Virus record (IMG/VR): IMGVR_UViG_3300036790_000034
Location: 33,492-97,491 of that record
From: a virus
Length of the DNA: 64,000 nt
Direction: 5' to 3' (one strand)
The notes under the pieces are model-generated. The model made no database searches. It saw only the letters and a list, made by a program, of their open reading frames with translations, and was not told where the DNA came from. The position numbers and the translations under genes were made by a program. Positions 8,650-29,431 of the stretch are shown here, piece by piece (position 1 is the first letter of the stretch; the number at the start of each line of letters is the position of its first letter).

Positions 8650-8711
8650 AGTTTGAATTATGCTCCTTGACTTTCTTGTCGCAACATGAGATACTGGCGA
8701 TGGGAGAAGAT

Positions 8712-9329
8712 ATGGAGAAAAGATACAAACTTGAAGGTCATGAACAAGACGTTGTTGATGCGTATCAGAGTGGACAACCGACCACTCTGATAGCTCGAAC
8801 ATTCGGGGTGTCTGCGACCTCAGTTAATCAACTGCTAAGAAAACTCGGGGTGCCTCGTCGTGATATGAAGACGAGTCACCCTCAAAAATCGCACTGTCGG
8901 TATGGGCACCCCCTATTCGGGGATAACCTCTATACGACGCAACGTGGGACTCGGGGATGTCGAGCATGTCGTAAGGCGTGGTTCGAGAAACATACACAGA
9001 CGGAAGAACAGAAAAATCGTAGTCGTGATTGGGGGCGACGAAAGCGAGAGAGCGACCCCGAATATCAGCGTAATGCGGATTTGTGGTCTTACTATCGTTT
9101 ACGTCGGCCTGAGTACGACCAGAAACTTCAGATTCAAAAACATCAATGTGCCGTGTGTAAGCAGTTGATGGAAAAACCTTGCGTTGACCACGACCACACT
9201 ACGTTTCAAGTGCGAGATTTAGTTTGTCGAAATTGTAATCTCGCTATCGGCCACGTAAGGGAAAGTCTCGAAATCGCAGAGGCTCTCGTCGCTTACCTCA
9301 AGAAATGGAGCACTCATGCCGCCTCTTAG
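8712..9329 (+). CDS. HNH nuclease with N-terminal helix-turn-helix
   Basis: From ATG 8712 (GGAG six bases upstream) the 205-aa protein starts with a helix-turn-helix segment (VVDAYQSGQPTTLIARTF, VSATSVNQLLRKLGVPRR) of the resolvase or invertase type. A CxxGHPL...CRAC zinc motif and an HNH core follow (CAVCKQLM, CVDHDHTT, RDLVCRNCNLAIG). The extra HTH could help in site recognition. Upstream starts at 8700 (ATG) and 8667 (TTG) are possible. The end overlaps the next structural gene by 14 bases. Confidence 0.88.
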   Translation: MEKRYKLEGHEQDVVDAYQSGQPTTLIARTFGVSATSVNQLLRKLGVPRRDMKTSHPQKSHCRYGHPLFGDNLYTTQRGTRGCRACRKAWFEKHTQTEEQKNRSRDWGRRKRESDPEYQRNADLWSYYRLRRPEYDQKLQIQKHQCAVCKQLMEKPCVDHDHTTFQVRDLVCRNCNLAIGHVRESLEIAEALVAYLKKWSTHAAS

Positions 9330-10907: not shown

Positions 10908-11324
10908 ATGGGCATCGAAATTCGTCCGTTCTCAGAAACGGACATCCCATCGTTGCAGGCTGCTATCGACCGCGACACAATCCATCCCGGCGAGTGGAGC
11001 GTCAGACACTTCTATGACGACCCCGAAGACCCGGATGCACTCAACATTCCTAAAGAAGTGACCACGATGTCGGACCAACACGGCCCGATTGCTTTCGTGC
11101 GTTACACGAAATCGCTCCGCATTTCTTGCATTTGGGATGACGAAAAAGATGTTCATAGAAATGCTCGGGCAATTGTCGCCGGCATTCTTGACGCAGTACA
11201 AAAAGCTAGAGCCAGTGGTTTTACGGAGATAGTCATCCAAACACAAAGTGAGAAACTTGCTATCTTTTTCGAGAAAGTTCTAAGAATGAAGCGTAGCCGG
11301 GAAGAATTTTTGCTGCAAGTATAG
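10908..11324 (+). CDS. GNAT-like internal virion protein (T7 gp13-like position)
   Basis: The 138-aa protein has the secondary structure of a GNAT acetyltransferase: IEIRPFSETD at the N-terminus, a HGPIAFVRYTKSLRI strand pair, a helix with NARAIVAGILDAVQKA, and FTEIVIQTQSEKLAIFFEKV near the end. T7 gp13 has the same length, a GNAT-like start and the same place between the nozzle gene and the gp14-16 genes. The classic acetyl-CoA loop (Q/RxxGxG/A) is not evident, so enzyme activity is doubtful. A GGAGGAG site lies 1-7 bases upstream. Confidence 0.6.
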   Translation: MGIEIRPFSETDIPSLQAAIDRDTIHPGEWSVRHFYDDPEDPDALNIPKEVTTMSDQHGPIAFVRYTKSLRISCIWDDEKDVHRNARAIVAGILDAVQKARASGFTEIVIQTQSEKLAIFFEKVLRMKRSREEFLLQV

Positions 11325-11334
11325 AAAGGCTCTC

Positions 11335-11748
11335 GTGAAGAAATCGAAATGTAGCCGAGGGCATCTCCTAACAAAAGACAACCTCATCATTAACCGAAAA
11401 GGTCGCCAATGTAAGAAATGTCATCGAGTTACTCAGCAGAGGTATCGTAAAACCCAGCAAGGTGTTTGGACTTCTAAATCGCGAGAAATCCGGGATTCTG
11501 GGTGGACATTAGAAAGATACCAAGACTTTTTGCGTGTCCAAGATAATGCTTGTGCTATCTGCAAAACTCCGTTTGAGCAATTTACAAGAAATCCTTCTTG
11601 CGACCACGACCACGCGTGCATGACCCCGCGAGGGTTGTTGTGTGATGCTTGCAATCTGGGAATCGGAAAGTTCAAAGAGAACCCTCTGCTCTTAGAACTT
11701 GCGGCTCAATATTTGAAGAAGTGGAAGGTATACGATGTGCGGACCTAG
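11335..11748 (+). CDS. HNH / endonuclease VII-like homing nuclease
   Basis: A GTG start gives a 137-aa protein beginning MKKSKCSRGHLL, with a CKKC zinc pair and a nuclease core CAICKTPF, CDHDHACM, PRGLLCDACNLGIG and a closing AAQYLKKW helix. It is inserted between the gp13-like and gp14-like genes, and its end overlaps the next gene by 14 bases. The protein is typical of the endonuclease VII-like class in this genome. Confidence 0.88.
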   Translation: MKKSKCSRGHLLTKDNLIINRKGRQCKKCHRVTQQRYRKTQQGVWTSKSREIRDSGWTLERYQDFLRVQDNACAICKTPFEQFTRNPSCDHDHACMTPRGLLCDACNLGIGKFKENPLLLELAAQYLKKWKVYDVRT

Positions 11749-12751
11749 TTCAGCCCTGAAAGCTGTCAATACTCAGATACAGAATCTCGCCACGACCGTC
11801 GGTGACGAGGGCCAACAAATCTTCGGTGATGCCAGCACGGTATTCAATAAGATTACAGGTGCTCTTAACGGCATCATCAGCGGTGGACCCGGCCAGAATG
11901 GATGGAGTGCTTCGGAGAACGCGGCACGTACCGCAGCAACAGTTCAGGCGGGGGCTACGGAAGCACGTAACCTCAAAGGTGCAGCGGCCTCGTCGGTCGC
12001 GGCCATTGGTGGCGGTAACACAGTCGCTCCCGCAGGCAGCACCCAGCAGATTGTCCAGAATGCCAACATTCAAGCGGCGTCTGATACCGCAGCGGGCCTC
12101 AACCAAAATCAAATCGCCAACGCTGAAGCAGGACGTTCGGAATTTAATACCGCCGTCCAGCAAGAAGAAGGTGCGACCCAGATGTTCAATCCGGCGACTT
12201 CGGCAAATCAAGTATCTGTCGGTGCCAACCAGTCAGCATTCCAGTCTCAATCCCAGATGGATACCCAAAGTAATTGGGCGATGAACGACATCATGAAACT
12301 CGGTGTCGCGGGCGTTCAAGGTCTCGGAACCGCGATGTGTCCGGCTGAGGGTAGCAAGTATCTCATGGCCGACTACATGGAACTCCCGGTCGAAACGCTC
12401 AACGTTGGCGACCGCATTCTCGGTATCGACGGTCTGCCAGAAACGATTCTGGAAATCCAGTCTTCGCTCATGCCGATTGTTCGAGTCGAAACGGAAGACG
12501 GTCATGTCTCGCGAAGTTCGAGGGTTCACGCCTTTGCACTTCCTCATGGCGGATTCGTTGTCGCAACGGACTCGATGAGCAAGACGATTCGTACCTCGCT
12601 CGGCAAGAGCAAGGTCATCAACATCAAGTTTGACGGCATGGCACGCGTATTCAACGTCATCACTGACGGGTCACACACTTATCGGGCTGACGGAATTTGG
12701 GCCTTGGGTGTGGGCGAAGCCGAACGTAAGACGATGGCACAGGGAGCATAA
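11735..12751 (+). CDS. Internal virion protein (gp14-like) fused to Hint domain
   Basis: Residues 1-200 are Ala/Gln/Asn-rich and start MCGPSS; length and position match T7 gp14 (196 aa), a core protein ejected into the host envelope. From Cys202 (CPAEGSKYLMADYMELPVE) the sequence is a Hint (hedgehog/intein) domain: TLNVGDRILGIDGLPETI, a block-B-like RSSRVHAFAL with His265, VFNVITDGSHTYRADGIWAL at about 305-324. The domain ends without the HN plus Cys/Ser/Thr needed for full protein splicing. It is therefore more like a bacterial intein-like (BIL) domain that could cleave at Cys202 and release or modify the gp14-like part. The C-tail is ~15 residues. Fusion is seen directly in one uninterrupted frame. 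Confidence 0.75.
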   Translation: MCGPSSALKAVNTQIQNLATTVGDEGQQIFGDASTVFNKITGALNGIISGGPGQNGWSASENAARTAATVQAGATEARNLKGAAASSVAAIGGGNTVAPAGSTQQIVQNANIQAASDTAAGLNQNQIANAEAGRSEFNTAVQQEEGATQMFNPATSANQVSVGANQSAFQSQSQMDTQSNWAMNDIMKLGVAGVQGLGTAMCPAEGSKYLMADYMELPVETLNVGDRILGIDGLPETILEIQSSLMPIVRVETEDGHVSRSSRVHAFALPHGGFVVATDSMSKTIRTSLGKSKVINIKFDGMARVFNVITDGSHTYRADGIWALGVGEAERKTMAQGA

Positions 12752-12752
12752 G

Positions 12753-15071
12753 ATGACTGTCGAACAAAACGCACCACAGCAGCCAAACGCAATGGGCGGG
12801 GCATCGACCACAACGTCGGATGTCAACGACCAACTACAGCCACGCACGCCTGACCAGTTGACTGCCGGGACATCCCCCGACCAGAAGACAGCGGGCACTC
12901 CCGACGTAACGCAGGCTGCTGCGGTCAAGCAGAATCAGACTGACGGTGGGAAGAATCTTCCTCCGGCAGCCGCTCCTACGCAGGACAAACCACATCCGGT
13001 CAGCCGCATCTTCGACAGCATTCTGAAGACGATGACAGGCGGGCCTGTGATGTACACGGCTCCCGATGGCTCCCGCAAGGAAGCCCCTCAGAGTCGCGGA
13101 GCGATGGGCAAGGCGATTGTCGCCGCTGCTCTCGCGGGACTTTTCACGCCGACGCAATATCGCGAAGGTGCATTCGGTTCCAAGGTCGAAGATTTCGGTG
13201 CGACCGCAGCCGGAGCAGCCGGAGCGGGCAAAGGCGTGATGCAGGAGTTCCGCAACAAGCCTCAGCAGATTTCTGATGAGCAGCAAGCGAAGCATCTCCA
13301 GACTGTGCTCAACACGACTAACCTCGCGACCACGATGGCCGCAAGTACGATTCAGAAACACAACGCTTTGGATGCGATGGTCAAGAGTTCGACTCCTCTG
13401 CTCGACAGCATCCGAGATTATGAGAAGACTCGCGTTGACAATCAGCCACAGGCTTTGATTCAAGGTGACATGACCCACGAGGAAGCCCTCGCGAAGTTGA
13501 AGGGTCACACAGGCGAGTGGACCGCAGTTCTTTCGGGAACTAAGGCTACTCTCAATCCTGAGACGGGTGAGACTGAAGAACACCCTGTCTACTCAGTCGT
13601 CAACCCGCACGTCAAGGTTCCTTTGAACGAGGAAGCTGTCAAGTTGTATTCGACAGTCAATCCGACTTACAAAGGTGCGTGGGAAGCGACGAATGGGAAG
13701 GTTGAAGTTCCGTTGAACATGGCTGTGTCCGCACAGAACCTTGTCAATGAATCTCACGTTCTCCAAGCGTTCGCTAACAGCGACGAAATGAAGTCCGCAT
13801 TCCCGAAGGTGAAGCCTGCGAACATCGCGGCTGTCATGAGCGGGCCGGACGGCAAACGCGTTGCTCAAGCACTCGACACGACTCGCGATGCTATCGCAGC
13901 GGGTGCCCCGGCGTACCAGACGTTGAACGCATTACAGCAGGCTCCCGGTGGACGCACGCTGATGCAGGCTCTCGGACTCGACCCCGGTCAAGTCAACGAG
14001 TACGTCAAAGACCAAACGAACAAAGCCATTCGCGAACAAGCACTCGCGAAAGAAGGCGGCGTAGGCGACAAGGCTCCAGTGTCCGCAGCACAGCAACAGA
14101 CCCTCCAGTCGGCCATCAACAAAGTTGAAGACCCGACAGAGCATCAGACACTCTCGGCTCTTATCCCGCCCGACCGTCCGTTGACGATGGGCGAGTTCCA
14201 AAAGGTCGGAAACGAATTGCGTCAGACAGTCCAACGTCTGCACGAAGATAAATTGAAGACGGGTGACCCAGCGGTCCTCCAGTCTGAAGCTGATAGCATG
14301 TTGAATGGCAATGTGTCGAATCCAAAAGACCTCGCAACAATCCGGTCTGGCGGAGCACGTACGCTGATTGACAGCTTGCTCCAGAAGGGTGCTGAAGCAC
14401 GCGGCCTGAATCCTGTGAACCATACGTTCGCAACTCAGGAAGCAAAGGCTCGGGCCTTCGCAGAGTACAGTGACCCACAGAGCAAGATTGGTGCTCAGTT
14501 GAGTTCGTTCGATACCCTGATGCGACACACCGCAGAAGGTCTTGACGCGAACGAGAATTGGGTCCGGTCGGGTTCTCCTCTCATCAACGAGAAGTTGAAC
14601 TGGCTGGCAGAGAACGCGACGAACGACCAAGACTATCAGACGTTCCGCGACACCATCATCGCTCCGGCGAAAGAGTACATGAACTTCCTGAATCAGAATC
14701 GTGCAGAACACGATTCTGACATCAAGGCAATGGACGGTATTCTCGGACCTAACGCAACTGCAAAGTCCGCACTCACGGCACTTCGGGTCATCACACAAAC
14801 CGCTGATGCTCGTGCAGCGGGTCTCGGTCAAAAGTATCTCAACACGGTCAAGAACAACTACGAAGGACTCATCTCTCCGGTCGCTCTGCAAGTCATGCAG
14901 AAGTTCGGAATCAAGAGTCAATCGGGTCCGTTGTCCGTGCAGTTGCCGCGTGGCTGGCAGGGCAACTCAGCATCGCCTCTTACGCCCCAAGCGTTGGATT
15001 CGTTCTGGGAAGCATCTGGTCACAACAAGCAATACGCGATGGACCTCGCAAAAGAAAACGGCTGGCGATAA
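12753..15071 (+). CDS. Large internal virion protein (T7 gp15-like position)
   Basis: The start at ATG 12753, one base after the previous stop, yields 772 aa, close to T7 gp15 (747 aa). Residues 1-75 are low-complexity Pro/Gln/Thr. The remainder is mostly helical and polar, with GAMGKAIVAAALAGLF near residue 110 as the only clearly hydrophobic stretch. No catalytic motif is seen. Gene order places it with the ejection proteins that form the transient DNA conduit in T7-like phages. Upstream codons to 12630 belong to the Hint-domain gene. Confidence 0.65.
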   Translation: MTVEQNAPQQPNAMGGASTTTSDVNDQLQPRTPDQLTAGTSPDQKTAGTPDVTQAAAVKQNQTDGGKNLPPAAAPTQDKPHPVSRIFDSILKTMTGGPVMYTAPDGSRKEAPQSRGAMGKAIVAAALAGLFTPTQYREGAFGSKVEDFGATAAGAAGAGKGVMQEFRNKPQQISDEQQAKHLQTVLNTTNLATTMAASTIQKHNALDAMVKSSTPLLDSIRDYEKTRVDNQPQALIQGDMTHEEALAKLKGHTGEWTAVLSGTKATLNPETGETEEHPVYSVVNPHVKVPLNEEAVKLYSTVNPTYKGAWEATNGKVEVPLNMAVSAQNLVNESHVLQAFANSDEMKSAFPKVKPANIAAVMSGPDGKRVAQALDTTRDAIAAGAPAYQTLNALQQAPGGRTLMQALGLDPGQVNEYVKDQTNKAIREQALAKEGGVGDKAPVSAAQQQTLQSAINKVEDPTEHQTLSALIPPDRPLTMGEFQKVGNELRQTVQRLHEDKLKTGDPAVLQSEADSMLNGNVSNPKDLATIRSGGARTLIDSLLQKGAEARGLNPVNHTFATQEAKARAFAEYSDPQSKIGAQLSSFDTLMRHTAEGLDANENWVRSGSPLINEKLNWLAENATNDQDYQTFRDTIIAPAKEYMNFLNQNRAEHDSDIKAMDGILGPNATAKSALTALRVITQTADARAAGLGQKYLNTVKNNYEGLISPVALQVMQKFGIKSQSGPLSVQLPRGWQGNSASPLTPQALDSFWEASGHNKQYAMDLAKENGWR

Positions 15072-15086: not shown

Positions 15087-18000
15087 ATGGAAAGCATGTT
15101 CCAACAGAAGGAAGACCAGAGCAAGCAACCACCAACTCAACCCAATGCTACCCCTGCTCCGGCCCCAACTCCGGCTGCGGCGGCTCCTGCTGCCCAGCCT
15201 AATCCTGCCGCTGGCGGGATGGACGCCATGTTTAGCCAGAAGGAAAAATCTGAGAACCCGCCTGCTGTAGCTGCGGGTGCAACTCAGCACACCGCGAACG
15301 AGGACAACTCCGCAGCGGCGAAAGAACTCGCAAGCAAACAGGGTGCCGCAAAACACGGCATCCTTGCTCGTGCATGGGATTGGGTCAACGAACCTATTCT
15401 CGACAACGTTCTTCCTGAAGGTGTGAAGACCGCTGACATCATCAAGGGTGCAGCGTTTGAGAAGATGTACAACGAAGCGTACATCCCCGGCGTCAACGAT
15501 TTCAACACGAAGGCAGCAACTCACTTCGAGCCTGCTGAGAAGGCTCTGTCGGCTCTCGGGCCACAGGAGAAAGACGGAGCAATCAAACGAAACATTCGCC
15601 AGTTTCTCATCGACCACGCGTCTTCACTCGACGCGGCTGCGAACGCAGGCAATACGTTCGTTGCTGGTGCGACACGAGATACGGCGGACATGGGAGCGGG
15701 ATTCACTTCGCCTCTATCTCTTGGTACACTCGGACTCGGTAAGGCGGGACGTGTTGGCAAGGTGCTGGCTCCGCTCGTCGGAACCGCATTCGGCCTGCAA
15801 GGTCTCGGTCAAGCGGGTGAGGGTGCCCAGAAACTCGCACGTACAACGACGTGGGAGAATTTGAAGCACGGATACCTCGACCCAGATGCAGTTCAAGAAA
15901 TGCTCGGTGGGGCTGGACAAGCGGCATTGGCAGGTACGGCTCCTGTTCATGGGGCTGGCGACCTCGTCGATTTCGCTAAAGGGAAAGCACGTCCGGTCAT
16001 GTCTACGGTCGGCGGACAAGAAGTCCCTGTTCGTGCATCCGGCACTGTTGCGGAAGCAGTTCAGAAAGGCGTGTCGCCGGAAGTCAATCAGGCCGCGACT
16101 GCGAAGACACAAGCCGCAGTTCAGGAGGGTGTTGGCAACGTCGTTGGTGAAGGCGTCGGTTCTAAAGCCCCGACGAAGATTGCAGGACAAGACCGTCTCG
16201 GCATTCGTGCTCACGCAGCCGACCTCAAAGAAGCTGCGACTGACGCGATGGATGAACTCAATCGTCTCAGCAACGGTGATTACGAAGACGCTAAGGACAT
16301 GATGGAGAAGTCGAAACGCGACTTCACTACCAAGGGTCGTGAGGACTTCACCACTGCACAAGGACTCCACGACGACATCATCGACCAACATCGCGAAGCA
16401 ATGGCGAACGCTGGGTACGATGTCGATGAGATGAAGGCAAATTATCGCAAAGCTATTGCTCTCGAAAAGATTGCCTCTCGCATGGACACAGCCACAGGTC
16501 CGTTGGAAGGTGGGACAGGATATGAAGTCAAGGGTGAACGTCTTGCGAAAATTATCGACGACATGCGACGGGTTCCCGGCAACGAAAATCCCTCGCTCTC
16601 GAAGAACCTCTTCGAGCGTGCTGGGCTGACCGAGGACCACATCAACGCGTTGGCTGACCTCGCGGATACTCTCCGTGACCAGCAAGAGATTCCGAAGTTC
16701 GGGTCTCTGACCAAGTTGGCTGCGAAGGCAATCTCTATCGCGGCGACGACACACATCGCCGGAGCCTCCGGCTTGTCTGGACTCTTCGAGGGTCTTGCGG
16801 GCGAGAAGGCGGGCGAGGTTGTCGGCAGCAAGGTCATGACCAAACTGTTCGGTGACGCTCTGACCTCAGAGCCGTTGGCGAAGGAACTCAACCAGAAATT
16901 GAAAGGCGGTGTCGCGGCCTTGAGCACTTGGGATAAATTCCAGAGTGCCGTGAAGGACGCGTACGCAAAAGCCAAGAGCGTAGACCTCGGCGGTGAAGAA
17001 GGTGCCGTAGGTGCCAACGTCACACGTCGGAATGTCGGTGAGCCACAGACGGGGAAATTCTCCCGTGGTGCCCAGCCCGTCAATGACACGCCGATGAAGG
17101 ACATGGAAGTTAAGAAACGCGAGAACGGCGATTGGGAATTCAATCACCCGAATGGCACAAGCCAGATGGTGTTGCACCCAGAGCCGGACACGCGACCGGG
17201 ATATGAAGGTAAGACTCAGCTTCGCCAGACGGGAATCTCCGCTGTCGATGCTCCCGGTGCAGGTCAACAGATGATGGACGATGCCGTTGCTCGGATGAAG
17301 AATCTCGACAACGTCAGTCGCGTCGTCTCGGACCACCCTGACCTCCGGTCGCCGGAGAACGAAGGGCATTGGTCAAAACTCGCTCGACGCGGTCACAACG
17401 TCGAAACAGAGCCAGCGATGGATAGCGACGGCAAGCCGTTCACTGGTCCGAATGGAGAAGAGGGTAAAGCCTACTCCATCTCGAACGAGGACAACGGAGC
17501 CAGTCAAGTCGCGGCTCACGAAGAAAAGGGTGGTTCGACGTTCGACTCTAAAGGTCGCAACCTCGATGGCTCGGACAAGTATACCGTAGCTACACACCCC
17601 GAACGCACTCAGGTAGTCGATGGGAAGTTGACGCCCGAACGTCTTCGTCAATTTAAGACTTTGAATGCGGACCTTCTGAATCAGGAAGGCTACGGCATCG
17701 GGACTTGGGATGATACGGACTCAGGCAAAACGACTCTCGACATCGTGAAGTTGTTCGACGACCGTAAGGACGCGGTTCAAGCTGGAAAGTCAGCGAACCA
17801 GAAAGCAATTTATCATCTCGGTGGTGAAGGTGAAATTCCGACGGGCGGAACGGATAAGGTTCCCGGCTCGGTCGCGGATGCTGGAGCACGTTATAACAAA
17901 TCAGTCGGCAAGAACCCAGAGATTGACAACACGAAAGTGGGTGTTGACTCTCGGGCGAATGCTATCGCTGACGCGTATGACGCGTTGAAGCACAACCCTA

Positions 18001-19877
18001 ACGACCCCAAGGTGAAGGCAGCATACGACGCACTCATCAAAGAGACGAAGGCTCAGTGGAACGCGTTGAAAGACGCGGGTTATAAGTTGGAGCCGACGGC
18101 CCAAGACCCTTACAAGGGTTATGAAGAGATGCGTGATGACATCAACCAGAACAAGCGAATCAAGGTGTGGACGGGCGGACAACCTCCGGCTGACCATCCT
18201 CTGTCGGCGGTAGACCCGGAGACGGGCCTGACGCACAACACGCTGTTCCGTGCGGTTCATGACATCATGGGTCACGTCGCGGGAGACAACGACTTCTCGC
18301 AAGCCGGAGAAGAGAATGCCTATCAGCGTCACGCACAGTCTTACAGCAAAGAAGCACTCCCGGCTCTGACTACAGAGACCAAGGGTCAAACCTCGAACTT
18401 CTTCAACAGTAGTAAGGTTCGTTCGGGTGCGGCCCCGGATTTCGCAGAACAGAAAGCTGGACTGCTCCCCGATAAGTTCAACGGGCCTCAGCAATCTGCG
18501 ACGGCTGAGAGTAGTGAAATCGCAACGCGTCGTCCGACATCAAAGAAAACTGATGTGACGAACGCTCCCGGCCAACACGCAGATATGGCCGGAGTAGAAG
18601 CCGCGACCAAGGCCAACCCCGGTGGGGGTGGGAAACTTGGATACGCGGAGAAGTTGGCACGAACTGTCGCGAAGTACACAGGGATTGAATTCTCGGAAGA
18701 AGACCTCCAGAATCCGCAGAAGGTGATGGAGAAATTCATCAACCACATGACGGACAATCTCGTGTCGCTGCACGATTCGATGCCGGAGCCAATGCGTCAG
18801 CTTGCTCGTCAGTGGTACGATACTGCGAACACGATGGCAAAGCAGATGGCTCAGAAGCACGGGGTCACACCTGAGCAGTCAGCCGGAGTCTTGGCAGCGT
18901 TGTCCCCACAGAACGCGTGGGACAACAACGTCGCACTGGCCGACCGCGTCATGGACACCTACAAGAATCGCCAGAACTTTGAGTACTCTCCGAAGATGGA
19001 AGCCCAAGCAGCGAAGATTAAGCAAGGGCAACTGTCGCGGGCGGCTCAAGGGATGTTGAAAGACATCCACGGCAAGACGCTGAGTGAGATTGATGCCCAG
19101 CAGATGCCGGAGCGATTCGCAAAGAAATGGGGTGATGAAGCGGACCAAAAGTGGGCGAACGTCAAAAAGGCTCAACAGGCGATGTGGGTTCGGTTGTACG
19201 ACGAAGCACACAATTCTCCTCAGAACCCGATGTTCCACCCGAACGGCGACATAGTTGGAATGTCACCCAACTCTCGTTCGTGGATTGGTCTCGACCGCGT
19301 AGCGAAGTCTCTCCGCATCCTTGACAATGGCAGCGTCGATAACATCAACGCAGTCATGGGGGACGGAAACAAGATTCGCAACTTCTACAACAACATCATC
19401 AATCCCGATTCACCCAACGGGCACACGACGATTGATACGCCCGCAGTTGGTGCGGCTCACTTCCAGCCGTTCTCCGGCGACGATGCTGAAGTTCAACACA
19501 ACTTCGGCAACTCTCCAAAAGGAATCGCTGGTGCCCCGAAGCACGCAGGAACAGGAATGCGTGGGACGTATCCGCTTTATGCGGAGGCGTACAAGCGTGC
19601 GGCTGCGAAGCTGGGCCTCCAGCCCCGCGAATTGCAGTCAATCACTTGGGAAGGGATTCGGTCGCTGATGGGCGACGAGAAAAAGACTCCAGCGTTGAAA
19701 GCCTTCGCCCGCGAAACGTGGGATAAGGTTCAAACAAAAGAGTTGACACCGCAGCAGGCTCGTGATTTAATTATCGAGAAGGCTGGCGGATTCTCAAAAC
19801 CGTCTTGGATGACCGATGAGCAATGGGATGAGGCTATGGGTACAGGCTTCAACCCAGAGGAGTTCAACCATGAGTAA
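15087..19877 (+). CDS. Giant multidomain internal virion protein (T7 gp16-like position)
   Basis: The 1596-aa protein takes the T7 gp16 place. Residues 1-75 contain a duplicated MFQQKE / MFSQKE motif around Pro/Ala-rich sequence. Hydrophobic stretches lie near 205-235 and 550-580. Mid-protein there are acetyltransferase-like sequence (about 670-790) and a block with LFRAVHDIMGHVAGD, GEENAYQRHAQ, ALTTETKGQ and AEQKAGLLP (about 1050-1130) that is shared by many very large phage and prophage proteins. The last 400 residues carry SAGVLAALSPQNAWDNN and GLDRVAKSLRI, again a recurring phage domain. No lysozyme or transglycosylase signature like that of T7 gp16 was found. Proposed role: ejection protein carrying effector-like domains into the host. 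Confidence 0.65.
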   Translation: MESMFQQKEDQSKQPPTQPNATPAPAPTPAAAAPAAQPNPAAGGMDAMFSQKEKSENPPAVAAGATQHTANEDNSAAAKELASKQGAAKHGILARAWDWVNEPILDNVLPEGVKTADIIKGAAFEKMYNEAYIPGVNDFNTKAATHFEPAEKALSALGPQEKDGAIKRNIRQFLIDHASSLDAAANAGNTFVAGATRDTADMGAGFTSPLSLGTLGLGKAGRVGKVLAPLVGTAFGLQGLGQAGEGAQKLARTTTWENLKHGYLDPDAVQEMLGGAGQAALAGTAPVHGAGDLVDFAKGKARPVMSTVGGQEVPVRASGTVAEAVQKGVSPEVNQAATAKTQAAVQEGVGNVVGEGVGSKAPTKIAGQDRLGIRAHAADLKEAATDAMDELNRLSNGDYEDAKDMMEKSKRDFTTKGREDFTTAQGLHDDIIDQHREAMANAGYDVDEMKANYRKAIALEKIASRMDTATGPLEGGTGYEVKGERLAKIIDDMRRVPGNENPSLSKNLFERAGLTEDHINALADLADTLRDQQEIPKFGSLTKLAAKAISIAATTHIAGASGLSGLFEGLAGEKAGEVVGSKVMTKLFGDALTSEPLAKELNQKLKGGVAALSTWDKFQSAVKDAYAKAKSVDLGGEEGAVGANVTRRNVGEPQTGKFSRGAQPVNDTPMKDMEVKKRENGDWEFNHPNGTSQMVLHPEPDTRPGYEGKTQLRQTGISAVDAPGAGQQMMDDAVARMKNLDNVSRVVSDHPDLRSPENEGHWSKLARRGHNVETEPAMDSDGKPFTGPNGEEGKAYSISNEDNGASQVAAHEEKGGSTFDSKGRNLDGSDKYTVATHPERTQVVDGKLTPERLRQFKTLNADLLNQEGYGIGTWDDTDSGKTTLDIVKLFDDRKDAVQAGKSANQKAIYHLGGEGEIPTGGTDKVPGSVADAGARYNKSVGKNPEIDNTKVGVDSRANAIADAYDALKHNPNDPKVKAAYDALIKETKAQWNALKDAGYKLEPTAQDPYKGYEEMRDDINQNKRIKVWTGGQPPADHPLSAVDPETGLTHNTLFRAVHDIMGHVAGDNDFSQAGEENAYQRHAQSYSKEALPALTTETKGQTSNFFNSSKVRSGAAPDFAEQKAGLLPDKFNGPQQSATAESSEIATRRPTSKKTDVTNAPGQHADMAGVEAATKANPGGGGKLGYAEKLARTVAKYTGIEFSEEDLQNPQKVMEKFINHMTDNLVSLHDSMPEPMRQLARQWYDTANTMAKQMAQKHGVTPEQSAGVLAALSPQNAWDNNVALADRVMDTYKNRQNFEYSPKMEAQAAKIKQGQLSRAAQGMLKDIHGKTLSEIDAQQMPERFAKKWGDEADQKWANVKKAQQAMWVRLYDEAHNSPQNPMFHPNGDIVGMSPNSRSWIGLDRVAKSLRILDNGSVDNINAVMGDGNKIRNFYNNIINPDSPNGHTTIDTPAVGAAHFQPFSGDDAEVQHNFGNSPKGIAGAPKHAGTGMRGTYPLYAEAYKRAAAKLGLQPRELQSITWEGIRSLMGDEKKTPALKAFARETWDKVQTKELTPQQARDLIIEKAGGFSKPSWMTDEQWDEAMGTGFNPEEFNHE

Positions 19878-21183: not shown

Positions 21184-22815
21184 GTGGCAAAGACGAAGGA
21201 CCAGTGGGTAACAACTGAGTTGGTTTCCGAGGAGTTTGTGAAGCAGGGTGGGAACCAGTCAGCAACGGCTCGTGCGTTGGGCATTCATCGTCGCACTGTA
21301 GACCGACACCTGAGACAGACGGGTCTTCTGAAGAAGCCTCTCGCGGGCGGCAAACGCCATGCTGAGGGACTCAAAACAAATCTCCCGGCCAAGGGAACCA
21401 TCAAACGTTTCATCCTGACATCGGCACAGAACAACACCCACGTCCACAAGGCGTTCTGGGCGAATCTGACTGCGATGGCAGACCACTATGATGCGAAGAT
21501 TCTGGTCGGCACGTTTTCGTACAACCAGAACAATTTCGGTCGCCTCGCTGTCAAGCAAGGCACGAAGAAAGCATACGAAAGCACGCTGTGGTTCGACCCA
21601 GCGGTCAAGCCGTACATCGCGGACGAGAAAATTGAACTCGCTCCGGGGTTGACATGGTGCGGCAACATGAACATTCTCCCGACGATGGACAATCCCATCA
21701 GCGGGCTAGAGACCTATGAAGGCTCTAATAGCACAATCTTCCCGCACACGAAGATTGAGATGCGGTCCATCGCGACAACGCCAGACCTCCCGACGAAGAT
21801 GATTTACACCACGGGAGCCTGCACGCTGATGAACTACATCCAGAAGAAGGAAGGCATCAAAGCAGAGCATCACCACCGTTACGCGTTCCTGCTCGTCGAA
21901 GTTGACGACAAGGGCAACTGGTGGGCACGACAGGTCGCGGCCCGTAAGAGCGGACGAGTCATCCAAGATTTGAATGTCATCGTCGAAGGCGGTGAGGTCA
22001 TCACTGACGACGCGAAGGTCGATGCGATTACGTGGGGCGATTTGCACGGCACGCTGGCCCAGCCGGAAGTTGTCGATGCTTCACAAATCATGCTCGATGA
22101 ATTGAAGCCGCGTTACCAGTTCATTCACGACATCTTTGAGGGCATCTCGGTCAATCCGCACCTTCGGAAGTACAAAGCGATTCACGAGAAATTCTCCGCA
22201 TGGAAGCGGGGTCTGCATCGTGTCGAAGAGGAGTTGAAACAGACGCGGCCAGTGCTTGAACGCTATCTGCGTCCGTGGTGTAAGACAGTTTGCCCCGATG
22301 CAAATCACGACCGTGCATGGTTTAAGAAGTGGCTTCGCGAGTACGACTATCGCCCGGACCCACCGAACACTCAAATTTTCCTGCGGATGCAGGACTTCAT
22401 GTACTCCCAATTGGATAAGGGAGTTCTGGCAAAGAACGTCAATTTGACGAAGTTCGTGCTGGAGAGAGAAGCTGGTTTGAAAGAAGGGGCTATCAAGTTC
22501 CTTCTGCCGGACGAGCCGTATCAGGTTGAAGAGGTCGAGTGCGGAATGCACGGACACCTTGGGCCGAACGGAGCGTTTGGTTCGCCATCGAACCTTGCGA
22601 AGATTGGAAAGAAGGCATCGACCGCACACACGCACTCATGCGGCATCTATCACGGGCTGTATGTCGCAGGAACGTCGTCGAAGCTGACGACCGAGTGGGA
22701 TTATACTAGCGGCCCGACATCATGGTCTCACAGCCACGTCGTGCAGTATCCGAACGGCCAGCGTGCCATCGTGACAATGAAAATTGTTGACGGGGTCGCG
22801 AAATGGCGGGCATAG
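21184..22815 (+). CDS. HTH protein with phosphoesterase-like C-terminus
   Basis: A GTG start gives 543 aa. Residues about 10-45 form an HTH (GGNQSATARALGIHRRTVDR). Between 75 and 340 is a mixed alpha/beta region with LVGTFSYNQNNF and EIRS-like MRSIATTPDLPTKMIYTTG. Near 470-520 come CGMHGHLGPNGAFGS, KASTAHTHSCGIYHGLYVAG and GPTSWSHSHVV. The His/Gly motifs in that order resemble the metal-binding loops of calcineurin-like phosphoesterases. Similar HTH plus phosphoesterase-like proteins occur in other phages without an agreed name. DNA end processing or transfer is only a guess. Confidence 0.5.
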   Translation: MAKTKDQWVTTELVSEEFVKQGGNQSATARALGIHRRTVDRHLRQTGLLKKPLAGGKRHAEGLKTNLPAKGTIKRFILTSAQNNTHVHKAFWANLTAMADHYDAKILVGTFSYNQNNFGRLAVKQGTKKAYESTLWFDPAVKPYIADEKIELAPGLTWCGNMNILPTMDNPISGLETYEGSNSTIFPHTKIEMRSIATTPDLPTKMIYTTGACTLMNYIQKKEGIKAEHHHRYAFLLVEVDDKGNWWARQVAARKSGRVIQDLNVIVEGGEVITDDAKVDAITWGDLHGTLAQPEVVDASQIMLDELKPRYQFIHDIFEGISVNPHLRKYKAIHEKFSAWKRGLHRVEEELKQTRPVLERYLRPWCKTVCPDANHDRAWFKKWLREYDYRPDPPNTQIFLRMQDFMYSQLDKGVLAKNVNLTKFVLEREAGLKEGAIKFLLPDEPYQVEEVECGMHGHLGPNGAFGSPSNLAKIGKKASTAHTHSCGIYHGLYVAGTSSKLTTEWDYTSGPTSWSHSHVVQYPNGQRAIVTMKIVDGVAKWRA

Positions 22816-26699: not shown

Positions 26700-26773
26700 G
26701 CGGGTGTGGGCCATTGGTAGGCTAGTTGGCTTCCACCCAACTTATGGGAGTTCAATCCTCTCCACCCGCTCCA
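26700..26773 (+). tRNA. tRNA-Gly(TCC)
   Basis: A full cloverleaf is visible: acceptor GCGGGTG/CACCCGC, D-loop with TTGGTA, anticodon arm GTTGG-CTTCCAC-CCAAC giving TCC, T-loop TTCAATC, U73 as expected for glycine, and an encoded CCA. It begins one base after the stop codon of the upstream gene. Confidence 0.92.
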
Positions 26774-26836
26774 TCGACGTAAAGCAAGCATACCCCGGTG
26801 ATGCCGATTAAAAGGATTCGCCGGGGATTGTGATGT

Positions 26837-26923
26837 TGGCATGTAAACCGTAACTGGTAGCGGGCTGCACTGTTAATGCAGTAGCTCACGCTTCTGTAGG
26901 TTCGAGTCCTACCTTGCCAGCCA
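26837..26923 (+). tRNA. tRNA with GTT anticodon and long variable arm
   Basis: The anticodon arm CTGCA-CTGTTAA-TGCAG gives GTT (Asn). The T-arm GTAGG-TTCGAGT-CCTAC, the G73-CCA end and acceptor TGGCATG/CTTGCCA (one mismatch at the sixth pair) are clear. The variable region is 14 bases with a small AGC/GCT stem, as in class II tRNAs (Ser, Leu, Tyr), and the D-stem looks like 3 bp. Bacterial tRNA-Asn is class I. The body resembles tRNA-Tyr, so an anticodon change from GTA to GTT is possible. Confidence 0.75.
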
Positions 26924-27283
26924 ATTTGTCTGCCTCTGTTGAAACAGGCTTGCCCCGGATTCAGGGTAACGAACGCCCACGCGACACAGATGGCGTGGTG
27001 ATGGTCTGCTGCTCGGTGAAACTCCGGGCGTATCCGAGATGACGAGAAGGATTACGCACGACGCGTGCTGGCGTTGCATCGTGTGACTTCGCTCGTCGGT
27101 TCCACCAGCAAAGACTTGCCGTAGAAGACCCCTGAACTCGTCGAAGGCGTTGCAGCCGAGAGTTCATGCCTCTACGCCCCACCTTTCCGGCCCGATGCAA
27201 CTAAGGCTAGTGAGGTTGCGTGCAACGGGGAACTCGCTAGGTCCGTCGAGTGGGCATTTTATAGATGCCTGTTACGGACCCAC
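26924..27283 (+). ncRNA. Structured noncoding RNA candidate B in the tRNA cluster
   Basis: The 360 bases between two tRNAs hold no credible gene but many complementary segments. These are CCACGC/GCGTGG (26977-26982 / 26993-26998), CTCGG/CCGAG near 27015-27045, and a long-range GTTGCATCG/CGATGCAAC pair (27073-27081 / 27193-27201). The long-range pair encloses TGCTGG...-independent stems GTAGA/TCTAC (27121-27125 / 27171-27175) and GAACTC/GAGTTC (27134-27139 / 27160-27165). GGTCCGT/ACGGACC (27240-27246 / 27274-27280) encloses GGCAT/ATGCC. Large ornate phage RNAs (GOLLD, ROOL classes) occur beside tRNA genes, but membership is not shown here. Confidence 0.55.
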
Positions 27284-27358
27284 GGGCCTTTATTTCAATT
27301 GGCAGAATCCCTCCCTTGCACGGAGGAGATGGGGGTTCGAGTCCCTCAAGGTCCACCA
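27284..27358 (+). tRNA. tRNA-Ala(TGC)
   Basis: Acceptor GGGCCTT/AAGGTCC, anticodon arm CCTCC-CTTGCAC-GGAGG with TGC, T-loop TTCGAGT, A73 and an encoded CCA are all present. The second acceptor pair is a G-T wobble rather than the usual third-position G-U identity pair, which is worth noting but does not remove the assignment. Confidence 0.88.
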
Positions 27359-27396
27359 TTCTTTTTGTCCGTTACTAATGGACACGCAACGAACAC

Positions 27397-27472
27397 GGAC
27401 AGATAGCTCCAATGGTAGAGCGTCGGTTTGAAACTCCGAAGGTTCGTGGTTCAACCCCACGGCTGTCCACCA
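27397..27472 (+). tRNA. tRNA-Phe(GAA)
   Basis: The cloverleaf has acceptor GGACAGA/GCTGTCC (last pair mismatched), D-arm GCTC/GAGC with the CAATGGTA loop, anticodon loop TTGAAAC giving GAA after U33, T-arm CGTGG-TTCAACC-CCACG, A73 and an encoded CCA. The anticodon stem has a T-T mismatch next to the loop. Confidence 0.85.
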
Positions 27473-27490
27473 TCTTCCCGAAAGGTAATC

Positions 27491-29290
27491 ATGCCACGAG
27501 GACTCAATCGCAGCGGTGACTTCCGCAACGGCTCACCCGTAACAACTCCAATCGACTTCGGTACAGACATCACTCTGCCACATGACTTCGGGAATGACGT
27601 GACGTGGCCGACTCCTGACCCAACTCACTTCGGCAACGCGGTCACTTGGCTCCCAGACCCCGCACACTTCGGCAACAAGATTCAACCACCGTTTCCGGCT
27701 CCGACGTTCACGAGTGCAACTCCGAACAATGGACCGACGACAGGTGGAACGCCCATTGCCATCGTAGGCTCGGGCTTCACAGCGACAGGTCTCGAAGTTC
27801 TCATTGGTGGAGTACCGTGTACGAGTGTCGTCGCAAGCGATGACAACAATCTGACGTGCGACTCTCCGGCGGGTTCCGCTGGGTTGACCGACATAGAAAT
27901 TATCACGGATGGCGGCAGCGTCGATGTACCGAATGCATGGACGTACAACGTCCCGGCCATCGCAATCGTCGCTCACACGATTCAGACGGGCGTTACATTC
28001 ACTCCCGGCATCACGACTTCAGCCATCAATTCATCTGGGGCATCGTTGCTGTTTCTCGCGGTCAACGGCTACCCAGCCGTCAATGCTCAAACGAGTAACT
28101 CTATCGTCATCACGGACTCAAAGGGTAACACATTCCGTCCGGTTCCGAACGGGAACACGGCACCATCTCCCGGCATCGTTCTCTTTTATTGTTCCGAACC
28201 TGTGACTGGCTCCGGCCACACAGTCAAGGTAGCATTCGGTGATTCAGGTGCGGGCGGTTACATTGCGTTTTCTGCATGGTCGAGCACACACAATCTTGTT
28301 CCGCAAGGCCAGGTTGTCAACTCGGGCACGACGAATCATGCGGCTCCATTCCAAGGCGGTTCACTCAACAGCAACACGGGCGACCTCATTCTGTCGGTCA
28401 TCGGTGGATACAACGGCTTCAGCACGAGCACGGGTCTCCCAGCAACAGTTGACACGGGCTTCACCATTCTTGATAGTGCCTTTGACTTGACGCCCGGTGC
28501 TGGCAGCGGTTGCGGTGGACTATCATACGGATATCTATTAGCACCGAATGCAACGCCCGTCAACCCGACGTGGACAATGCAGGCATCTGTTACTGCTGCG
28601 ATGGTGGTCAATGTCGTCTTCGCGAAGGCTTCTACGGCGACGGTTCAACTCATTGTACAGGCAAAAGCTACTTCTGCGAATGCGACAACAACGACTCCGG
28701 CGGTCAATACGACAGGAGCCAACTTCCTCATCGCATCCGTTCAGAAGTTCTCAGATACGGGTGGTCCTGCGGGCATCACGGACAGTTTCGGCAATACGTG
28801 GCACAATGTCGCGTGGAGTCAATCTCAGAGCAACGGCAAACCTGCATTCTACTACGCGTTCAACGCAACGGTAGGAGCAGGGCATACGTTCACAGTGACA
28901 GATAGCGATGGAGCTATTTGTGTCATGGCCTTCTCCGGTGTCCAGTCTAATGCTGACCCGTTGGAGTCCGGTAATGACATCGCGGCTCTATCCGGGTCCG
29001 CGACATATCAAGCGGCATCACCAATTACTCCGGCGTCGGCGGGTGACCTAGTTGTCACGGCTCTCGGCAACATCTTCGCTACGACTCCTCTGACGACCTT
29101 CCTCAGTGTTGACCAGACCAATCTGTCTGGTGGTTTGACTTCACCGAACAGCAACGATTGTGCTGGAGCTATCGCGTTTAGCATCGCACAGGACAATACG
29201 ACTCCACTTCAACCGACGTGGACCGGATTGACCAGTGGTGCAGACTTCAACCGAGGTTACAACATCTTCGCCGTGTTCAAGCACGCATAA
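27491..29290 (+). CDS. IPT-domain virion surface protein
   Basis: The start is ATG 27491 after GAAAGG; an in-frame start at 27428 would lie inside tRNA-Phe. The 599-aa protein opens with four short DFG/HFG-type repeats (residues about 20-62). An IPT/TIG immunoglobulin-like domain follows (TPNNGPTTGGTPIAIVGSGF, about 72-155), then two beta-rich repeats of about 200 residues each with TDSKGNTFRPV and TDSFGNTWHNV. IPT domains often mediate surface attachment in phage fibres. The gene is last in the late block and directly precedes the terminator. Confidence 0.7.
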   Translation: MPRGLNRSGDFRNGSPVTTPIDFGTDITLPHDFGNDVTWPTPDPTHFGNAVTWLPDPAHFGNKIQPPFPAPTFTSATPNNGPTTGGTPIAIVGSGFTATGLEVLIGGVPCTSVVASDDNNLTCDSPAGSAGLTDIEIITDGGSVDVPNAWTYNVPAIAIVAHTIQTGVTFTPGITTSAINSSGASLLFLAVNGYPAVNAQTSNSIVITDSKGNTFRPVPNGNTAPSPGIVLFYCSEPVTGSGHTVKVAFGDSGAGGYIAFSAWSSTHNLVPQGQVVNSGTTNHAAPFQGGSLNSNTGDLILSVIGGYNGFSTSTGLPATVDTGFTILDSAFDLTPGAGSGCGGLSYGYLLAPNATPVNPTWTMQASVTAAMVVNVVFAKASTATVQLIVQAKATSANATTTTPAVNTTGANFLIASVQKFSDTGGPAGITDSFGNTWHNVAWSQSQSNGKPAFYYAFNATVGAGHTFTVTDSDGAICVMAFSGVQSNADPLESGNDIAALSGSATYQAASPITPASAGDLVVTALGNIFATTPLTTFLSVDQTNLSGGLTSPNSNDCAGAIAFSIAQDNTTPLQPTWTGLTSGADFNRGYNIFAVFKHA

Positions 29291-29293
29291 CAC

Positions 29294-29354
29294 AAAGGCC
29301 CGCTGTCAACATGGTTCCATTACGGAACTATATTGACAGCGGGCCTTTTTCTTT
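29294..29354. terminator. Bidirectional intrinsic terminator
   Basis: AAAGGCCCGCTGTCAA pairs with TTGACAGCGGGCCTTT in a 16-bp perfect stem, with a GTTCC/GGAAC hairpin in the loop. T-runs follow on the plus strand and the complementary A-run gives one on the minus strand. It lies between the converging plus-strand late genes and the minus-strand genes, so it can stop both. Confidence 0.93.
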
Positions 29355-29431
29355 TGGTGGCTAGGGGACGATTTGAACGTCCGACGGCGGGCTTATGAGG
29401 CCCGTGCTCTACCAGACTGAGCTACCCAGCC
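29355..29431 (-). tRNA. tRNA-Met/Ile2(CAT)
   Basis: On the minus strand the acceptor GGCTGGG/CCTAGCC, D-arm GCTC/GAGC, anticodon arm CGGGC-CTCATAA-GCCCG with CAT, T-loop TTCAAAT, A73 and an encoded CCA are visible. The first pair G1-C72 argues for elongator Met or Ile2 rather than initiator. It directly abuts the terminator at the end of the minus-strand transcripts. Confidence 0.9.

What the first reader, a model, noticed from the sequence alone, without database searches (positions are those of the whole stretch)
11735..12751. Hint (intein-like) domain fused to a gp14-like ejection protein
One uninterrupted frame joins a ~200-aa Ala/Gln-rich protein in the T7 gp14 position to a Hint domain beginning at Cys202, with TLNVGDRILGIDG, a block-B-like SSRVHAF and GSHTYRADGIWAL. 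The C-terminal HN and nucleophile of splicing inteins are missing. The domain might cleave the protein during assembly or ejection, or link its end to another molecule. Intein-like processing of an ejectosome protein would be a new use.
Basis: partly seen in the sequence, partly recalled or inferred. Interest (0 to 1): 0.75.

Follow-up and report, generated by a model that had tools for sequence, protein, structure and literature searches.

The report
Self-processing domain on phage ejection protein
In soil podophages, a small protein in the gene slot of the T7 outer-membrane pore protein often carries an intein-like domain at its end that can no longer splice but still looks able to cut itself off, which would be a new way to mature a DNA-injection protein if it works.

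Summary
The 338-aa ORF at 11735-12751 is one open frame: a ~201-aa Ala/Gln-rich body in the T7 gp14 slot, then a Hint domain from Cys202. A 16-sequence AlphaFold model of the Hint is confident (pLDDT 89.8); its best PDB matches are inteins, a bacterial intein-like (BIL) domain and Hedgehog. It is no accident of one contig: 17 distinct IMG/VR proteins carry this Hint family, C-terminal on a gp14-slot protein in each locus examined. The bodies fall into several families; the two largest show no detectable homology. Cys1, block-B Ser and His, and block-F His are invariant in all 17; the block-G His-Asn is absent from all 17. In the best sampled body family (24 loci) the Cys sits where Hint-less homologues end (median 192 versus 191.5 aa). 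Hint, no module, or a CFI-box-like module that also starts with Cys alternate there (at least 10 changes on the tree). Best reading: a phage-specific, type-B-BIL-like module that makes a thioester at Cys202 and is cut off, releasing a normal-sized gp14-like protein. Fold, position, conservation and exchange are shown; cleavage, its timing and the ejection role are inferred.

The parts
11735..12337 (+). Ala/Gln/Gly-rich, predicted helical body (residues 1-201) of the gp14-slot protein; starts MCGPSS
   Evidence: (low-confidence model, helices only); Hint-less homologues L003, L011, L012 and Tunturi_3 ORF23
12338..12727 (+). Hint domain (residues 202-331), intein blocks A, B, F present, block G replaced
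12338..12340 (+). Cys202, Hint residue 1, predicted N-S acyl shift nucleophile; invariant in 17 of 17
12518..12529 (+). block B S262-R-V-H265 (intein positions B:7 and B:10); S and H invariant in 17 of 17
   Evidence: position names from PMC4031507
12650..12703 (+). block F FNVITDGSHTYRADGIWA (F:4 is N307 instead of Asp; F:13 is H314, invariant)
12704..12709 (+). L324-G325 in place of the block-G His-Asn, so no Asn cyclisation
12710..12748 (+). C-terminal tail VGEAERKTMAQGA; the VSMxxWxxIGxxL segment of most family members is missing here
10908..11324 (+). 138-aa protein upstream, in the slot and size of T7 gp13; conserved across relatives
11335..11748 (+). Endonuclease VII gene overlapping the gp14-slot start; also present in Hint-less L003, so not tied to the Hint
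12753..15071 (+). gp15-slot protein (likely ATG at 12753; the mechanical ORF starts at 12630)
15087..19877 (+). gp16-slot protein, 1596 aa, with DUF7178 match

Best explanation
The C-terminal Hint is a phage-specific self-processing module. It folds, moves the M201-C202 peptide bond onto the Cys202 side chain (thioester), and the thioester is resolved by water or a small thiol, so the Hint is released and a normal-sized (~201 aa) gp14-like ejection protein remains. It cannot splice because the His-Asn and the following nucleophile are gone. Before release the soluble Hint may keep the aggregation-prone pore protein in solution or block premature assembly. Shown: fold, boundary, conserved N-terminal-reaction residues, loss of block G, purifying selection, recurrent fusion in one gene slot, exchange between unrelated bodies. 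Inferred: that cleavage happens, when, and what it is for.
For: Confident Hint fold. Cys1, B:7 Ser, B:10 His and F:13 His invariant in 17 of 17 sequences of 39-76% pairwise identity, block-G His-Asn in 0 of 17. In the MSRAQ body family the length up to the Cys is 188-206 aa (median 192, n=9), against 158-198 (median 191.5, n=10) for whole Hint-less homologues; known gp14-like proteins are 181-240 aa (PMC8954989). Identity at codon positions 1/2/3 is 0.81/0.87/0.38 for the Hints of L027 and L030, a sign of purifying selection. These two Hints are 77% identical on bodies with no detectable homology. Type B BILs are described as lacking block G and cleaving without splicing (PMC4031507; PMC7765530). 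T7 gp14 is insoluble alone (PMC8954989), which makes a removable soluble tail plausible.
Against: No biochemical data. B:7 is Ser, not Thr, and F:4 is Asn or Ser, not the usual Asp. In the window's own body family, Hint-less homologues run about 14-35 aa beyond the Cys site, so the match to the natural end is good only in the MSRAQ family. The window copy is a long branch and lacks the conserved tail, so it could be partly decayed. Hint presence is patchy, so processing is not essential to gp14-slot proteins in general.
Confidence: 0.55

Rival explanations
1. Hedgehog-like transfer: the Cys202 thioester is resolved by another molecule (a lipid, a partner virion protein, or the exposed N-terminal Cys2 of a neighbouring copy after Met removal), leaving the gp14-like C-terminus covalently attached.
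For: Same residues as for cleavage; block G is replaced by a conserved motif ([L/Y]-G-V-G) followed in most members by VSMxxWxxIGxxL, which could be a recognition segment. CFI-box-like modules starting with Cys occupy the same place, hinting that the C-terminus is a site for attachment or sorting. The window body starts M-C.
Against: The tail is absent in the window and different in L105. Most Hint-bearing bodies start MS or MA, not MC, so ligation to an N-terminal Cys cannot be general. No partner gene that follows the Hint was seen.
Confidence: 0.2
2. Catalytically silent Hint kept as a folded C-terminal tag or assembly domain; the protein stays full length.
For: The splicing half is lost; B:7 and F:4 are atypical; the patchy distribution fits an optional add-on.
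Against: Cys1 and the block-B pair stay invariant over 39-76% pairwise identity, which a silent domain would not need.
Confidence: 0.15
3. Remnant of a mobile intein that spreads as a nearly neutral C-terminal cassette by recombination, perhaps helped by neighbouring endonuclease genes.
For: At least 8 changes of Hint presence on a 24-locus tree; transfer between unrelated bodies; EndoVII genes nearby in the window, L003 and L011.
Against: No endonuclease domain in the ~130-aa Hint; EndoVII is also near Hint-less genes (L003, L011), and none matching the window's was found beside the Hint in L001; always the same gene slot in the loci examined; purifying selection.
Confidence: 0.1

Closest known systems
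Type B bacterial intein-like (BIL) domains
   Same: Hint with blocks A, B, F and no block-G His-Asn; described as cleaving without splicing (PMC4031507, PMC7765530)
   Different: Those lie in hypervariable bacterial proteins; this family was found only in phage contigs, at the C-terminus of gp14-slot proteins, with its own W(A/S)LGVG(E/D)AER motif; cleavage untested
Hedgehog C-terminal (Hog) Hint domain
   Same: C-terminal Hint without Asn; Cys1 and block-B His; TM 0.67 to 1at0
   Different: No sterol-recognition region; animal signalling proteins; no evidence of lipid transfer here
Phage inteins (terminase, helicase, gp41-1)
   Same: Fold (TM 0.86 to gp41-1) and N-terminal sequence, e.g. the Mesorhizobium phage terminase intein
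   Different: Those keep His-Asn (or Asn) plus a nucleophile and a C-extein; here these are lost
Achromobacter phage JWF Hom_end-Hint protein (AJD82922)
   Same: C-terminal Hint without His-Asn on a tail-fibre-like protein; first 55 Hint residues 33% identical
   Different: Different host protein and a diverged second half
T7 gp14 and other podophage ejection proteins
   Same: Slot between gp13-sized and gp15/gp16-sized genes, ~200 aa, Ala/Gln-rich
   Different: No detectable sequence homology; T7 gp14 carries no Hint
CFI-box-CTERM domain (NF041770)
   Same: Alternative C-terminal module starting with Cys at the same place on MSRAQ-type bodies
   Different: ~70 aa, unrelated sequence, matches below the curated cut-off; function unknown

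Membership tests
Hint superfamily | Hint fold | tested here: met
   AF2 pLDDT 89.8; Foldseek top hits all inteins, BIL and Hedgehog
Hint superfamily | Cys/Ser at position 1 and block-B [T/S]xxH | tested here: met
   17 of 17
Splicing intein (class 1) | C-terminal His-Asn followed by Cys/Ser/Thr | tested here: not met
   Leu-Gly or Tyr-Gly then Val in 17 of 17
Splicing intein (class 1) | C-extein that continues the host protein | tested here: not met
   Protein ends 13-31 aa after the block-G position; Hint-less homologues end near the Cys
Split intein | Complementary C-intein elsewhere in the genome | tested here: not met
   No second match in the 97.5-kb record; the record may be incomplete
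Type B BIL | Hint without block G | tested here: met
   definition from PMC4031507
Type B BIL | Clusters with known type B BIL sequences | not tested
   No reference set was at hand
Type B BIL | Autocatalytic cleavage | not testable with these tools
   needs expression
T7 gp14-like ejection protein | Slot directly upstream of gp15- and gp16-sized genes; 181-240 aa | tested here: met
   201 aa before Cys202; order; size range from PMC8954989
T7 gp14-like ejection protein | Detectable sequence homology | tested here: not met
   hhalign probability 0.1%; no PHROG or PDB match; profiles were shallow
T7 gp14-like ejection protein | Virion location and outer-membrane pore | not testable with these tools
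   Nearest isolate, Tunturi_3, is a podovirus (PMC11924767); no proteomics found
Hedgehog Hog domain | Sterol-recognition region after the Hint | tested here: not met
   only 13-31 residues follow

The most novel reading that the evidence does not exclude
The C-terminus of podophage pore proteins is a dedicated processing or attachment site served by interchangeable Cys-initiated modules (Hint or CFI-box); the Hint uses its thioester to join the ejection protein to another molecule, making a covalently modified DNA-injection channel.
Probability: 0.15. Interest if true: 0.85.

Novelty: new variant of a known kind. Interest (0 to 1): 0.62.

Why it matters
Self-processing of a podophage ejection protein by a Hint domain was not found in the papers searched. 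It would explain how a pore-forming protein can be made and packaged safely, gives a compact Hint that would naturally stop at the thioester stage (useful for protein ligation), and links two poorly understood C-terminal modules, Hint and CFI-box, to one site on one class of protein.

Tried and rejected
Trans-splicing partner: no second Hint in the record. Collaborative homing by the adjacent EndoVII gene: EndoVII is also next to Hint-less L003, and the blast against window genes found none beside the Hint in L001. Bacterial origin: two genome-contig scans found no relative, although the peptide-pattern scan is narrow. Close relatives in isolated phages or plasmids: none. AlphaFold of the full protein with 5 sequences was poor (pLDDT 43) and was not interpreted beyond helix/strand content. 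Homology between MCG and MSRAQ bodies, or to T7 gp14: none detected with shallow profiles. Tree of Hints: mostly unresolved, and one-clade tests did not reject (p 0.22 and 0.12), so exchange rests on identity contrasts instead. dN/dS: dS close to saturation, so codon-position identity was used. Head-to-tail ligation by an N-terminal Cys: not general, because most members start MS or MA. Literature: no paper on Hint in ejection proteins; only open-licence papers were searched.

Full report
What is there. The ORF at 11735-12751 encodes 338 aa in one frame. Residues 1-201 are rich in Ala/Gln/Gly/Thr/Ser/Asn (67%) and predicted helical (low-confidence model). From Cys202 a Hint domain begins. Pfam Hom_end_hint matches at E=3e-5, below its curated cut-off. 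phmmer against the PDB finds PI-SceI and Prp8 inteins only weakly; a family profile does better (E=7e-5). AlphaFold with 16 family members gives pLDDT 89.8 and pTM 0.82. Its PDB neighbours are inteins, BIL domains and Hedgehog, with 57 matches at E<=0.001.

Context. The window is bases 33492-97491 of a 97,491-base virus record. The upstream part carries a large terminase, a head-tail connector/portal match (phrog_332) and a major head protein. The nearest cultivated relative found is Tunturiibacter phage Tunturi_3, a 97.6-kb podovirus (PMC11924767), whose ORF23 is homologous to the body but has no Hint. The gene order is: large tail protein (1441 aa), EndoVII, 236 aa, two small genes, 138 aa, EndoVII, gp14-slot, ~772 aa, 1596 aa. 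It parallels T7 gp12, gp13 (138 aa), gp14 (196 aa), gp15 (747 aa), gp16 (1318 aa). Sequence homology to T7 gp14 was not detectable, so 'ejection protein' is a positional inference.

The family. Searches with the window and L001 Hints, then with growing alignments, gave 17 distinct Hint proteins: the window, the 15 other rows of alignment A7, and the diverged L105. A further scan with the C-terminal pattern found no new member. In each locus examined the Hint is C-terminal and the gene lies in the gp14 slot. The bodies fall into several families: MCG-type (window, L001/L027, L029), MSRAQ-type (9 loci), SNAA-type (L032, L034), and single cases. MCG and MSRAQ bodies show no detectable homology (hhalign 0.2%). 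Nevertheless the Hints of L027 (MCG) and L030 (MSRAQ) are 77% identical while their bodies align at 23%. Between the window and L001 the Hint is 66% identical and the body 33%, whereas other shared genes are about 31-47%. So the Hint travels between unrelated gp14-slot genes.

Conservation. In all 17, Cys1, block-B Ser and His (B:7, B:10) and block-F His (F:13) are invariant, and the block-G His-Asn is replaced by Leu-Gly or Tyr-Gly (block names from PMC4031507). The other A7 members carry a following GVG(E/D)AERxVxMxxWxxxG tail; the window has lost most of it and L105 differs. Codon positions 1 and 2 are conserved far more than position 3 (0.81/0.87 versus 0.38 for L027-L030). This pattern is expected if the N-terminal reaction is under selection and splicing is not.

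Where it sits. I compared 24 MSRAQ-type loci. Nine carry the Hint, ten carry nothing, and five carry another module that starts with Cys (CW[IV][AS]...[FY]GGW), weakly matched by CFI-box-CTERM (E=4.6e-5 in one, 0.009-0.022 in three, no match in one). The body length before the Cys is 192 (Hint) and 188 (CFI) at the median, and the whole length is 191.5 where there is no module. On the body tree the module state changes at least 10 times, and Hint versus no Hint at least 8 times; several forks are unresolved, so these counts are approximate. In the MCG family the Hint-less relatives instead run about 14-35 aa beyond the Cys site.

Mechanism. The most economical reading is an N-S acyl shift at Cys202 followed by hydrolysis or thiolysis: the Hint leaves and a gp14-sized protein remains. 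By the definition in PMC4031507 and PMC7765530 this works like a type B BIL. Membership in that family was not tested by phylogeny. T7 gp14 is insoluble alone and kept soluble by gp15 (PMC8954989), so a removable soluble tail makes sense; this is inference. Transfer of the thioester to another molecule, a silent folded tag, and a near-neutral mobile remnant remain possible.

Comparison with the known. A C-terminal Hint without His-Asn on a phage tail-fibre-like protein has a precedent in Achromobacter phage JWF, and BFVD lists many phage Hint proteins. I found no report of a Hint on an ejection protein in the open literature searched. I therefore rate it a new variant of a known kind.

Noticed in passing
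L055, L056, L057, L062, L068: CFI-box-CTERM-like modules, starting with Cys, replace the Hint at the C-terminus of the same gp14-slot family.
   Followed up: partly
window 8667-9329 and 11335-11748: Two Endonuclease VII genes lie within the virion gene block; the second overlaps the gp14-slot start by 14 bases and also occurs in L003.
   Followed up: partly
window 21184-22815: 543-aa protein matching phrog_1745 'DNA transfer protein' (E=2e-153) with an N-terminal helix-turn-helix motif.
   Followed up: no
window 26700-29431: Five tRNA genes (Gly, Asn, Ala, Phe, Met).
   Followed up: no
L018:2077-3525 (Achromobacter phage JWF): Tail-fibre-like protein with a CNCDCNCNCSC stretch running into a C-terminal Hint without His-Asn; two genes on is an annotated anaerobic sulfatase-maturating enzyme.
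   Followed up: partly
L016:1387-6165 (Ruegeria phage V18): Hint domain inside a tail tape measure protein, ending HHN-T, thus probably a true splicing intein in a virion protein.
   Followed up: no
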